Below are positions 4,966-20,752 of a DNA stretch of 64,000 nucleotides, one piece after another; position 1 is the first letter of the stretch; the number at the start of each line of letters is the position of its first letter. Source of the DNA: Antennarius striatus (lineage: Eukaryota; Chordata; Actinopteri; Lophiiformes; Antennariidae); the NCBI RefSeq assembly GCF_040054535.1, contig NC_090795.1, positions 3,137,501 to 3,201,500 on the forward strand, written 5' to 3'. The notes under the pieces were generated by a model. That model was not told the DNA's origin. It did no database searches and saw nothing but the letters and a program-made list of their open reading frames with translations. Position numbers and translations under genes: made by a program.

Positions 4966-5019
4966 ATGGGACAGGCAGGAAATTGCACTTCGGCTTTTCA
5001 AATAAAGCATCTCGAATGA
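4966..5019 (+). promoter_or_regulatory. Upstream ORF overlapping the PKS-A start codon
   Basis: If transcription begins near 4942, the first ATG in the leader is at 4966. It opens a 17-codon ORF whose TGA (5017-5019) overlaps the PKS-A ATG (5016-5018) as ATGA. The next in-frame PKS-A ATG is at 5019. A leader ORF that ends on the main start often lowers or conditions translation; that role is inferred. Confidence 0.5.
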
Positions 5020-8000
5020 TGGAGGAGATGGGAGACGGTGTAGCTGTTATTGGGATCGGATGTAATTTCCCTGGAGGTTTGACATTGATGTGCATTCTTA
5101 GTTTTTTTCCATTTATAACAACGTAATTGTAATGGGTATTGTGGTTGGTGTTGTAGGTGAGGGGTTGGACAATTTCTGGAGGGTTCTGCTGGAGGGGAAG
5201 AACTGTGCCGTGGATATTCCAGCGGAGAGATTTGACACAAGATTCTGGTACAATCCAGAGGATGGCAAGCCAGGAAAGATGCAGACAACTAAAGCAGCTC
5301 TTATAGAAGGGTAACGATAGTCTGATTAGACTACATGTCCATCATTTCATCAAGAGATGATTGATTAAATCACGGCATTGTTATAATTTAGGTTCAACGA
5401 GTTTGATCACAAGTTTTTTGGCATCACTGAAGTTGAGGCTGACTTCATGGACCCTCAGCAGAAACTCCTTCTGCAATGTAGCTACAGAGCTTTGGAAGAT
5501 GCAGGAGTTGCTATGGAAACCATCAGTGGAACTAGAACTGGAGTTTACATCGGTGACAGCCGTTCCGTGATAGAGTTCCAAGCACGATTTTGTGATGCAA
5601 TTGTGAGAAACACTGCTTTTCTTACGGTGTTGCAGGTCTGATGAATAAGGATTACGAGATGATCCAAAACAACAATGCAGCTGCAATAAGCCACTACAAT
5701 GGCACAGGGACGGCAATGAGCATGGCTGCCAATAGGATATCCTTCACCTTTAATCTCACTGGCCCATCTTTTGCCGTTGACAGTGCCTGCTCTTCATCTC
5801 TGGTGGCTCTACATCTAGCCTGCCAGGCTATGAAGCAAGGTATGTAAGTTGTCCTTTCCTTAAGTATTGTCATGCCTTATAGGAAGCCAATCTAAGCATT
5901 GTATTTAAATATTCCATCTTTCATTTCACTGTTTTTAACTAGGAGACTGCGTGGCGGCTCTTTGTGGAGGGGTCAGCTGTATAATCGAACCAAGAGTGTT
6001 TGTCGCTCTCAGCAAGGCAAAGATGATCTCACCGGATGGGATGAGCAAGCCTTTCTCCAGCGGTGCAGATGGATACGGTCGAGGAGAGGGCTGTGGTGTC
6101 GTTCTCCTGAAGCCCCTGACAGAAGTAAATGATCACGATTATTATTACAGTCATCTCAGATCAGTTATAAATGTGTGTGACTTTTTGATGTTCTATATAA
6201 AAGGCCATTAAAGACGGCAACAAAATATGGGGTGTCATCAGCAAAACGGCAGTCAACCAAGACGGTCACTCTGTCACCCCCATCACCAAACCATCCACGG
6301 TTCAACAACAGGAGCTGTTGGAAGGAATCTACTCAGAGATTGACATAGCAAATATTCAGTACATCGAGGCGCATGGGACTGGAACCCCAGTTGGGGATCC
6401 GGTAGAGGCAGAGAGCATCTCAAAGGTCATCGCTAAAGCCAAACCTCCTGGTTCAGCGACACTGCGGATTGGAACTGTGAAGGGCAACATTGGACATACA
6501 GAGTCTGCTGCTGGAGTGGCTGGACTCATTAAGGTACTCTTGTTGATTAAGCATGCAACTATTGTTCCTTCAGTTTTCTACTCAGGAGACAGTTCCAACG
6601 TAGATTTAAAACGACTGTGCTTAAGTATTCCTACCAAAGCTGAGAGATGGGAGACAGGTGGAGCATTAGTACGGATGGCTGGAATCAACAGTTTTGGGTT
6701 TGGCGGCACAAATGCCCATGCCATTATAAGAGAGCACAGACAGACCAACATTCCCACACAGATTCCAAAATGTTGTCCAAACCTCTTCATAATATCGGCA
6801 GCGTCTGAGAAGTCATTTGTCCTGTCCATCAGCAACACTCACCAGAGACTATATGGTGATCAAAAAATTGACTTGCAGGCATTGTCATACACATCAGCCT
6901 GTGGAAGGAGTCATTCGAGGAACAAATACAGGAAGGCCTTCCCGGCATCTTCCCTTGTAGATTTGAAACATCACCTGACATCTGCAGAGAAAGCCAAATT
7001 TCATCCCATAAAGTCGGACATTCGAGTGGTCTTTGTGTTCTGTGGAAACGGGGTTGCCTACAGGGGAATGTGTAAGCAGCTTCTGCACCAGGTTCCTGCT
7101 TTCACAAATAAGGTCAGAGAGGTTGAGAATCACTTCCAGAGTCATAACAGCATCAACATCAGTCAGTGGATTGCTGGTGAGTGTGATAGTGATGATTTCC
7201 ACAGACCACATATTGTCCAGCCTCTTCTTTTTGCTATTCAAGTTGGCGTCGCTACTCTCTTGAAACAATGGGGTGTCAAACCTGATGTTGTGATTGGACA
7301 CTCTGTTGGCGAGGTCGCTGCTGCTCACTGCTCCGGTCTCTTGTCTCTTGAGGATGCTGTCCAAGTGTTGCACCTTCGCAGTACTCTTCAAGGCAATGTA
7401 ACAGGAGGGAGAATGCTTCTCGTTGGCAATGTGGCTGTGGAAAAAGTATTAGAAATACTTCCAGATTTCTCTGGAAAAGTTTGTGTCGCAGCATTCAACA
7501 GCCCCCAGTCCTGTACTCTGTCAGGGGATTCGGGTTCTCTTGATGTCCTCCGTCAGAGACTGTCAGAGTTTACTGAGAACAATGTTTTCCTTCATGAATT
7601 AGATGTACCAGCAGCATATCATAGCCATATGATGGACCCCATACTAGATGATGTTGAGAAACAAATTAGTCCTTTAGAGGCCAACCAATTGGAATCCAAA
7701 CTTTTTTCAACAGTGACTGGAGATTGTTGTTCTGATAGTGACTTTAGAACAGGCAGATACTGGGCAAGAAATATCAGAGATCCTGTTTTATTTGAACAAA
7801 CACTGCGCGCTGTTGCTAAAGATGATCAATCAAGGACAAAGGTAGTGTTTGTAGAGATCGGACCTCGTAGAGCTCTCCAGAGGAACATATGTGAGACTCT
7901 GGGAAATAACACCAAAGTTCTTTCATCCATCCAGCCAGGGAAAGATTATGACACAATCATGTCTACCGTTGCAAAGCTATTTGAATTAGGCATCAATGTT

Positions 8001-19300: not shown

Positions 19301-20752
19301 CATGTCGCAATCACCTGATAAGAAGATACAGCTTTCATAACCTGGACAAATGAAATCCACCTTTGTGGATGGTTTCAATCAGGGTTCATGGTACACACCT
19401 TGTTTAATGGACTGGCAGGCAAGATGAAGAGCTACCAGCGAAGATGAACAGGCACAGTCTATGGACAGTGAGGGTCCAGTGAAGTTGAAAATGAAAGACA
19501 CTCTGTTTGCTGCAATACTCATAGCCAGCCCTGTGCCCGTCCAGTGGTTGATGACATTTGGGTGCACATGTGCAGCGTTTGTCTCATAATCTCTGTTCAT
19601 TAGCCCTGCAATAAAAGTGCCATAAAACTAGTTGTTGTTGTTTTTGCATTGTAATAAAATTATACCACTGAGATAAATGTAATAAAATGAAATAAGGAAT
19701 CAAATTGTTGGAAAAAAAAAAGGTTCCATTATATATTTTAGTCAAAATGAATTAATTATACCCAAAATTACACAAAACTGAAGCAATAACAACACATATG
19801 TTTTGACTTACCAAAGAACACTCCCGTCCTGGTCCCACTGGCCTCCTCCATTGGAATTCCAGCATTCTCTAAAGCCCTGTAGACACACTGAAGCAGCTGC
19901 TTCTGCTGAGGGTCCATTTGCTCCACCTCACTGTCAGTGATGCCAAAGAACTTGTGGTCAAATTCGTTGAACCTGAAATCATTCAAATCATTCAGTCAAC
20001 TCAAGCTGAATTCAGTTCAGAACTTTTGCAATCATCTCAGTTAAATTATAAGATTTTCTGGTATCTATAATTGTCGTTAAGTGTTTTGTTTTAAGTTCAT
20101 ATGGAATGTTGAAATTTTTTAAATTACATCAGCATTTCTATTACAAAAAAATATATAATGTAGAAATATAATCTACACTTTTGATTAGGTATATATCTGA
20201 AATACGCCTATACACAACAGTACATAAAATATATATATCACGCTAATCCAAACAGGCCAGTTAGTGAGCTTTGAAGAACCTACCCGTCAATAAGTGCAGC
20301 CTTGGCTGTGCGGGATTTACCCGCTTTGTTGTCATCAGGGTCATACCAGCTGGATATATCAAACCGGTCTCTGGGAATGGGCACAGAGCAGTTCCTCCCT
20401 TCCAACAGAACCTTCCAGAAGTTATCAAGCCCTTCTCCTGTTTGGGAAAATATAGGTGTGTGTACTTTTTAAAAGGTCCCTTCAATCAGGACAAACGGTC
20501 ATAGAAACCGTTTCAGGAAGCAAAGATAATTTTAAACTTCATTTGAACAAAATAAGTATGTGTGATATATATATATATATATATATATATATATATATAT
20601 ATATATATATATATATATATATATATATATATATATATATATATATATATATATATATATATATATATATATATATCTCAAATGTTTGGCTTACCACCAG
20701 GAAAGTTGCATCCGATTCCAACCACTGCAATTCCGTCCTCAGTTTCATCCAT
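13321..20752 (-). CDS. Type I iterative polyketide synthase, PKS-B (2102 aa)
   Basis: Paralogue of PKS-A on the opposite strand. Exons in transcript order: 20695-20752, 20284-20437, 19812-19972, 19399-19605, 19133-19314, 13321-18867 (6309 nt, 2103 codons with stop). Exons 2, 3 and 5 have exactly the PKS-A lengths (154, 161, 182) and all intron phases agree; exon 4 is one codon longer. KS Cys177 (DCACSSS), EAHGTGT and GNIGHTES are present; AT Ser619 (GHSVGE); DH His918, but the motif reads [10 protein letters not shown], with Asp922 in place of the conserved Gly; DH Asp in [12 protein letters not shown]-like region with SSMPDS near residue 1547 instead of a glycine-rich loop; [11 protein letters not shown] with Tyr1882 (QTNYGAAN); ACP Ser2037 (LGIDSM). 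No thioesterase. The start is the first ATG in the exon, matching the PKS-A N-terminus ([13 protein letters not shown]). No in-frame stop or frameshift was seen. Confidence 0.95.
20565..20676. repeat. (AT)56 microsatellite in PKS-B intron 1
   Basis: An uninterrupted AT dinucleotide run of 112 bases. It fills almost half of the 257-base first intron of PKS-B (20438-20694) and begins about 18 bases inside the splice donor. Confidence 0.97.

What the first reader, a model, noticed from the sequence alone, without database searches (positions are those of the whole stretch)
5016..20752. Two complete, tail-to-tail type I polyketide synthase genes in a vertebrate genome
Both genes encode full KS-AT-DH-(ER-like)-KR-ACP proteins with the KS, AT, KR and ACP catalytic residues visible and no in-frame stop. 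Intron positions and phases are identical, so they are paralogues from an inverted duplication. Animal PKS genes are rare and their products mostly unknown; two divergent intact copies side by side suggest two products or two tissues. That a fish PKS is needed for otoliths is established for medaka and zebrafish as I recall it; the role of this pair is inference.
Basis: partly seen in the sequence, partly recalled or inferred. Interest (0 to 1): 0.92.

Follow-up and report, generated by a model that had tools for sequence, protein, structure and literature searches.

The report
Fish paired polyketide synthase genes
This stretch of a fish chromosome carries two intact, tail-to-tail genes for large enzymes of a known vertebrate family, one of which fish need to start building their ear stones, plus a broken third copy, so it is a good example of something already described.

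Summary
PKS-A (+ strand, 5016-11693) and PKS-B (- strand, 20752-13321) splice into 2083 and 2102 residues without internal stops. Each has six exons with intron phases 1,2,1,1,0. They are 51% identical. Motif residues of KS, AT, DH, KR and ACP are in place in both. The "ER-like" part has lost its NADPH loop in both: SSSASA and SMPDSA, against GSGGVG in the genome's own FASN. No thioesterase was found. Elsewhere in the 548-Mb genome the searches found only FASN and a stand-alone ketosynthase.

This is the vertebrate iterative PKS family. Medaka olpks has six exons and 2051 residues and seeds otoliths; medaka is tabulated with three pks genes, fugu and zebrafish with two each (PMC4604110). Budgerigar MuPKS makes polyenes through a dead ER (PMC6334511). 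Best reading: A is the otolith pks; both make conjugated polyene chains; B's tissue and product are unknown. "Two products" is untested, and medaka's two extra copies were reported unexpressed. New member of a known kind; interest moderate to low.

The parts
5016..11693 (+). PKS-A, six exons (5016-5076, 5157-5310, 5392-5552, 5636-5839, 5943-6124, 6204-11693), 2083 aa; KS-AT-DH-psiKR-(dead ER)-KR-ACP; likely the olpks/pks1 orthologue (inference)
   Evidence: Splicing without internal stops; Pfam domains; catalytic motifs
13321..20752 (-). PKS-B, six exons (20695-20752, 20284-20437, 19812-19972, 19399-19605, 19133-19314, 13321-18867), 2102 aa; same layout, 51% identical to A; departures from consensus: DH HxxxDxxxx[20 protein letters not shown]
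9660..10643 (+). Degenerate ER of PKS-A (about residues 1407-1734); NADPH loop position reads SSSASA
   Evidence: own-genome FASN control GSGGVG
14452..15420 (-). Degenerate ER of PKS-B (about residues 1404-1726); NADPH loop position reads SMPDSA
22325..23808 (-). PKS-C, decayed direct duplicate of B: pieces of exon 3, intron 3, KS C-terminal half, KS-AT linker and AT end; frame changes, in-frame stops, large deletions
   Evidence: Six DNA pieces at 74-95% identity to B, intron pieces included, plus one exact 20-base piece; stops and frame changes
4912..4917 (+). TATA-box-like TATAAA about 105 bases before the PKS-A start codon
   Evidence: a consensus match only
3481..3945 (+). ORF with an M41-peptidase exon (YME1L1-like; name recalled), left neighbour of PKS-A
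   Evidence: Pfam PF01434, E 1.3e-7, above cut-off; no PDB match
25570..27208 (-). Exons of a short-chain dehydrogenase (retinol-dehydrogenase-like; name recalled), right neighbour
   Evidence: PF00106 at E 1.3e-3 and 3.4e-5, both below the curated cut-off; one PDB match, E 1.1e-11

Best explanation
The pair is the fish version of the vertebrate iterative type I polyketide synthase family (medaka olpks, zebrafish pks1, budgerigar MuPKS, duck ApPKS). In each enzyme the AT loads acetyl and malonyl units onto the ACP, the KS condenses them, the KR reduces the ketone and the DH removes water. The ER cannot bind NADPH, so the double bond stays and repeated rounds build a conjugated polyene chain. 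There is no thioesterase, so release must be spontaneous or need a partner. PKS-A is most likely the olpks/pks1 gene whose lipophilic product is secreted into the otic vesicle and seeds otolith calcium carbonate. PKS-B is an old, still constrained paralogue with an undetermined site of use. A later direct copy of B (PKS-C) has decayed. Shown here by sequence: gene structures, intact motif residues, lost ER loop, no detected TE, genome census, decay of C, constraint on the pair. Inferred: polyene chemistry, which copy is the otolith gene, expression of both.
For: Gene models with identical intron phases and no internal stops. Five catalytic domains and no TE or methyltransferase among Pfam matches at E<=0.01. 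Motif residues in place, including an AT arginine at A646/B644; B644 carries the same number as MuPKS R644, whose change to W underlies the blue budgerigar locus (PMC6171735 passage; not aligned by me). NADPH loop lost in both while intact in the genome's FASN. Profile of the two ERs against the PDB: 24 of 24 matches at E<=10 end by profile position 172, before the loop; best is the CurF ER, E 8.4e-4; a 61-residue FASN stretch over that loop matches 30 solved sequences at E<=1e-5, CurF included. Olpks: six exons, 2051 aa, rescue lost or nearly lost when any of the five domains is mutated. MuPKS polyene with inactive ER; duck AT takes acetyl and malonyl. KS scores: CurL 363 bits, LovB 338, animal FAS 247 at best. 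Constraint: KS 73.5% identical against ER 42% and psiKR 40%; dN/dS 0.19.
Against: No expression data and no product. dS near 2 is saturated, so dN/dS is rough and cannot be given per copy. No other fish pks sequence was reached, so orthology of A to olpks rests on anatomy only. Medaka's two other pks genes are reported as not expressed, which argues against a second working product if B is one of them. A's first splice donor is weak. The ER model was unusable (mean pLDDT 30), so ER loss rests on sequence alone; and recognisability is not activity, since the FASN stretch also matches the ERs of EcPKS1 and EcPKS2, which PMC7280274 calls non-functional. In the small KS tree the deep nodes are weak, and FASN is as similar to the bacterial KSs (up to 44%) as A is (up to 43%).
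Confidence: 0.72

Rival explanations
1. PKS-B is on the way out: formally intact but functionally relaxed or almost silent, leaving one working enzyme (A).
For: B departs from consensus at three motif sites (KS DCACSSS, DH HxxxDxxxxP, KR VGG). Its KS branch is slightly longer (0.202 against 0.158). Its own duplicate C has decayed. Medaka's two extra pks genes are reported as not expressed and their DH is marked as lacking an active-site residue.
Against: 1848 codons of exon 6 have no stop, while C, at dS about 0.12 from B, already has several breaks. The catalytic residues searched for remain in B. The DH Gly is not diagnostic: of 13 bacterial loci 7 showed a recognisable motif and 4 of those 7 also lack the Gly (whether those DHs work is unknown). 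B-C dN/dS is 0.54 over 207 codons, as expected if B is constrained and C is free.
Confidence: 0.2
2. A and B make the same product; the pair only adds dosage or splits expression. (Compatible with the best explanation.)
For: Same domain set, same lost ER loop, same AT motifs (GHSVGE, AYHS), KS 73.5% identical.
Against: 51% identity overall and no recent conversion tract: the DNA pieces aligned between A and B are 65-77% identical. That leaves room for different chain length or reduction pattern.
Confidence: 0.3
3. These are extra fatty acid synthase genes.
For: Shared KS-AT-DH-ER-KR-ACP order with animal FASN (recalled layout).
Against: The genome has its own FASN on the same contig at about 15.0 Mb. 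A's KS is 36.9% and B's 36.7% identical to that FASN but 73.8% to each other. PDB KS scores favour microbial PKS. ER loop lost, no TE found.
Confidence: 0.02
4. Microbial contamination or a recent transfer from bacteria.
For: KS resembles bacterial PKS more than animal FAS.
Against: Five introns in each gene. Flanked by vertebrate-type genes: greatwall/MASTL, M41 peptidase, carbonic anhydrase. Best bacterial KS identity among the 13 loci used is about 43%. Relatives are tabulated in fish, reptiles, birds and marsupials (PMC4604110 Table 2).
Confidence: 0.01

Closest known systems
Medaka olpks and its two paralogues OlPKS-2 and OlPKS-3 (PMC4604110)
   Same: Six exons and 2051 aa (olpks), KS-AT-DH-KR-ACP; more than one pks copy per genome; the accessions of OlPKS and OlPKS-2 are consecutive, which hints at neighbouring genes.
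   Different: Two intact copies plus one pseudogene here, three genes in medaka; arrangement and sequence of the medaka copies not seen by me; function untested here.
Zebrafish pks1 (PMC6531356)
   Same: Needed for otolith formation. Gly239, changed to Arg in the vns mutant, is also Gly239 in both A and B.
   Different: Sequence not available here, so orthology not tested; on zebrafish chromosome 24.
Fugu LOC101079294 and LOC101079519 (PMC4604110 Table 2)
   Same: Two pks genes listed with the full KS-AT-DH-KR-ACP set, consecutive protein accessions and close gene numbers, consistent with a neighbouring pair.
   Different: Orientation and sequence not seen.
Budgerigar MuPKS and duck ApPKS (PMC6334511, PMC6171735)
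   Same: Vertebrate iterative PKS; ER inactive (MuPKS) or suspected inactive (ApPKS); no TE, no methyltransferase; AT arginine (same number in MuPKS and B).
   Different: MuPKS product known (polyene precursor of a feather pigment); birds mostly have one copy.
Animal FAS-like PKS such as EcPKS1 and EcPKS2 (PMC7280274, PMC10764717)
   Same: Animal synthase, ER without NADPH-binding residues, no TE, polyene products.
   Different: Closer to FAS than to PKS; not found in vertebrates by PMC10764717; exon 6 of A scores Dictyostelium PKS16 (337 bits) above EcPKS1 (262) and pig FAS (240).

Membership tests
Vertebrate iterative type I PKS (OlPKS/MuPKS group) | One module KS-AT-DH-KR-ACP, about 2050-2100 aa | tested here: met
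   2083 and 2102 aa; all five domains above Pfam cut-offs in both
Vertebrate iterative type I PKS (OlPKS/MuPKS group) | Catalytic residues of KS, AT, DH, KR and ACP | tested here: met
   KS C-H-H, AT S-H-R, DH H-D, KR K-S-Y-N, ACP S by motif match in both; meaning of the motifs recalled
Vertebrate iterative type I PKS (OlPKS/MuPKS group) | ER inactive, NADPH motif lost | tested here: met
   Loop SSSASA / SMPDSA against FASN GSGGVG; profile matches stop before the loop. Sequence evidence only
Vertebrate iterative type I PKS (OlPKS/MuPKS group) | No thioesterase, no methyltransferase | tested here: met
   None among the Pfam matches at E<=0.01 for either protein
Vertebrate iterative type I PKS (OlPKS/MuPKS group) | Six exons as in olpks | tested here: met
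   against PMC4604110 section 17; exon positions of olpks not seen
Vertebrate iterative type I PKS (OlPKS/MuPKS group) | KS nearer to microbial PKS than to animal FAS | tested here: met
   PDB bit scores of A: 363 and 338 for CurL and LovB against 247 for the best FAS. In the small KS tree A+B is 100% supported and not sister to FASN, but deep nodes are weak (51, 62)
Vertebrate iterative type I PKS (OlPKS/MuPKS group) | Falls in one clade with sequenced fish and bird PKS | not testable with these tools
   No vertebrate PKS among the PDB matches shown (best 60 of 138, best 60 of 77); the other collections are described as prokaryotic, viral, phage, plasmid or metagenome
Otolith-seeding pks (olpks/pks1 function) | Otic-vesicle expression and loss of otoliths on knockout | not testable with these tools
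   No expression or mutant data
Animal fatty acid synthase (FASN) | Working ER and C-terminal thioesterase; KS in the FASN clade | tested here: not met
   ER loop lost; no TE found; about 37% KS identity to own FASN
Animal FAS-like PKS (AFPK) | KS closer to animal FAS than to PKS | tested here: not met
   microbial PKS score above FAS, and above EcPKS1 and EcPKS2
Decayed pseudogene (A or B) | Stops, frameshifts, lost introns or missing domains | tested here: not met
   None in A or B; stops, frame changes and missing domains in C

The most novel reading that the evidence does not exclude
PKS-B makes a second, chemically different polyketide in this fish (other chain length or less dehydrated), so that a vertebrate runs two dedicated polyketide lines from one locus, one for otoliths and one for an unknown tissue.
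Probability: 0.25. Interest if true: 0.6.

Novelty: new member of a known kind. Interest (0 to 1): 0.3.

Why it matters
Vertebrate polyketides are almost unexplored: per PMC10764717 only the budgerigar enzyme has been characterised among vertebrate PKSs, and the otolith-seeding compound of fish is unknown. A compact locus with two intact, old paralogues and a decaying third is a clean place to ask which copy seeds otoliths and what the other is for. The finding does not open a new class of system.

Tried and rejected
Structure prediction of A's ER from the two-sequence alignment gave mean pLDDT 30, so no fold search was run on it; the job for B's ER was never accepted. A Pfam control with a 76-residue FASN ER fragment matched no ADH family, so it says nothing; the PDB comparison was used instead. 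The idea that B's DH is dead because of HxxxDxxxxP was weakened by the control: of 13 bacterial loci 7 had a recognisable motif and 4 of those 7 lack the Gly. The scan of prokaryote contigs gave one relative among 57 pattern matches and the viral scan none; both used a few narrow peptide patterns, so they say little about absence. The KS tree (17 sequences) does not resolve the deep order. The short M41 query found nothing in the PDB, so the YME1L1 name rests on Pfam PF01434 and recall. Among the papers listed in eight searches I saw none whose title or abstract start is about the tail-to-tail pair; four of these searches listed only part of their matches (20 of 39, 15 of 502, 15 of 17,365, 12 of 699), and most subscription papers are not held.
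Full report
Observation. Splicing gives PKS-A (+, 5016-11693, 2083 aa) and PKS-B (-, 20752-13321, 2102 aa), each with six exons, intron phases 1,2,1,1,0, GT-AG introns and no internal stop. Exon ends were placed by frame and by comparing the two genes; there are no transcripts. A's first donor, GTTTGA, is weak. They face each other tail to tail 1.6 kb apart and are 51% identical. Identity by domain is KS 73.5, AT 55, DH 45, psiKR 40, ER 42, KR 57 and ACP 50% (domain limits set by me). 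Pfam finds KS, AT, DH, KR and ACP above cut-off in both and neither a thioesterase nor a methyltransferase at E<=0.01.

Third copy. Upstream of B on the same strand lies PKS-C (22325-23808). Six DNA pieces match B at 74-95%, intron pieces included, plus one 20-base exact piece, with stops, frame changes and large deletions. Over the two longest blocks (207 codons, one stop codon dropped) dS is 0.115 and dN/dS 0.54, as expected for one constrained and one free copy. C gathered its breaks within that distance, whereas A and B, near saturation from each other (dS about 2.1), have none.

Genome census. The window lies at C20:3137501-3201500 of a 548-Mb genome in 42 contigs. Searches with exon 6 of A (8 matches at E<=0.001), exon 6 of B (11 matches at E<=1) and the ketosynthase family PF00109 (13 matches) find only A, B, C, a FASN gene at C20 14.97-15.02 Mb and a stand-alone ketosynthase at C14 18.53 Mb, of the mitochondrial OXSM type by recall (assignments). 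PF00109 alone does not hit C, which lacks that part. The tool scores only its best candidates, so weak relics could be missed. No third intact pks was found, whereas medaka is listed with three.

The ER. Where the genome's own FASN reads [23 protein letters not shown], A reads [22 protein letters not shown] and [22 protein letters not shown]. A profile of both ERs against the PDB sequences has 24 matches at E<=10, none reaching past profile position 172, just before that loop; the best is the ER of CurF, E 8.4e-4. A 61-residue FASN stretch spanning the loop matches 30 solved sequences at E<=1e-5, CurF among them. A caution: those 30 include EcPKS1 and EcPKS2, whose ERs PMC7280274 calls non-functional, so recognisability is not activity. 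Only ADH_N is recognised by Pfam: 24.0 bits in B and 17.6 in A against a cut-off of 23.5. A structure prediction failed (pLDDT 30), and a Pfam control with a FASN fragment gave no ADH match. So the ER is very probably inactive in both, on sequence grounds alone.

Other residues. KS Cys and two His, AT Ser/His/Arg, DH His/Asp, KR Lys/Ser/Tyr/Asn and ACP Ser are present in both (motif meanings recalled). B differs at KS DCACSSS, DH HxxxDxxxxP and [10 protein letters not shown]. The DH change is not diagnostic: of 13 bacterial loci, 7 showed the motif and 4 of these lack the Gly.

Relationships. A's KS scores 363 bits with CurL and 338 with LovB but at best 247 with animal FAS. The first hit in that list, a two-stretch match of 618 bits to a putative bacterial PKS (7zma), is not comparable because two stretches add up. 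With exon 6 of A as query the top hits are Dictyostelium PKS16 and mycocerosic acid synthase, with EcPKS1 and pig FAS lower. In a 17-sequence KS tree (A, B, own FASN and stand-alone KS, 13 bacterial loci) A and B join with 100% support; their order relative to FASN and bacteria is weak (51 and 62), and FASN is as similar to the bacterial KSs (up to 44%) as A is (up to 43%). Terminal branches are 0.158 (A) and 0.202 (B).

Constraint. A-B over 2056 aligned codons: pS 0.70, dN/dS 0.19; KS 0.12, KR 0.14, AT 0.19, ACP 0.26, ER 0.29; DH and psiKR saturated. Differences by codon position are 35, 26 and 59%. These values are averages over both copies.

Neighbourhood. To the left: an M41 peptidase exon (YME1L1 by recall) and, beyond the window, greatwall kinase/MASTL. 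To the right: short-chain dehydrogenase exons and a carbonic anhydrase whose best PDB matches are CA2. MASTL beside YME1L1 in mammals too is recalled, not tested.

What is known. Hojo et al. 2015 (PMC4604110; outline, passages and sections 17-19 seen): medaka olpks, six exons, 2051 aa, KS-AT-DH-KR-ACP; needed for otoliths; single-residue changes in each domain abolish or nearly abolish rescue; extracts of fungus expressing it rescue the mutant; three pks in medaka, two in fugu, two in zebrafish; [quoted passage not shown] PMC6531356 (passages and the discussion seen): zebrafish pks1 needed for otoliths. PMC6334511 (abstract, passages, sections 5 and 10 seen): duck PKS AT transfers acetyl and malonyl; MuPKS makes polyenes through an inactive ER; no TE in the group. 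PMC10764717 (passages seen): PKS relatively widespread among vertebrates, roles mostly unknown. PMC7280274 and PMC6171735: passages only. Cooke 2017 and Lee 2019 were not held and are known here second-hand.

Verdict. Real, intact, and a good instance of a described vertebrate enzyme family. The likely mechanism is iterative polyene synthesis with an unknown release step. A is the likelier otolith gene because it keeps the consensus motifs checked and has the shorter KS branch, and because Hojo marks OlPKS-2 and OlPKS-3 as lacking a DH active-site residue (I did not see which residue). B's role is open. The pair is of moderate to low novelty.

Noticed in passing
window 57309-59370 and 60241-60644: A long array of telomere-type repeat (GGGTTA, about 337 units, 80% matches) followed by a degenerate array in the opposite orientation (CTAACC, about 69 units, 66% matches), about 3.19 Mb inside a contig: an interstitial telomere-like tract, perhaps an old fusion or repair scar.
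   Followed up: partly
window 4966-5019: A short upstream reading frame in the presumed 5' leader of PKS-A whose TGA stop overlaps the A start codon (read from the sequence), a layout that could throttle translation.
   Followed up: no
window 49410-51865 (-): Exons of a carbonic anhydrase (best PDB matches CA2) about 29 kb from the PKS genes. Carbonic anhydrase also serves otolith mineralisation (recalled), but the linkage is probably chance.
   Followed up: partly
window 20565-20676: A pure (AT)56 tract inside intron 1 of PKS-B.
   Followed up: no
G000:C20 14.97-15.02 Mb: The genome's FASN lies on the same contig as the PKS pair, about 11.8 Mb away.
   Followed up: partly
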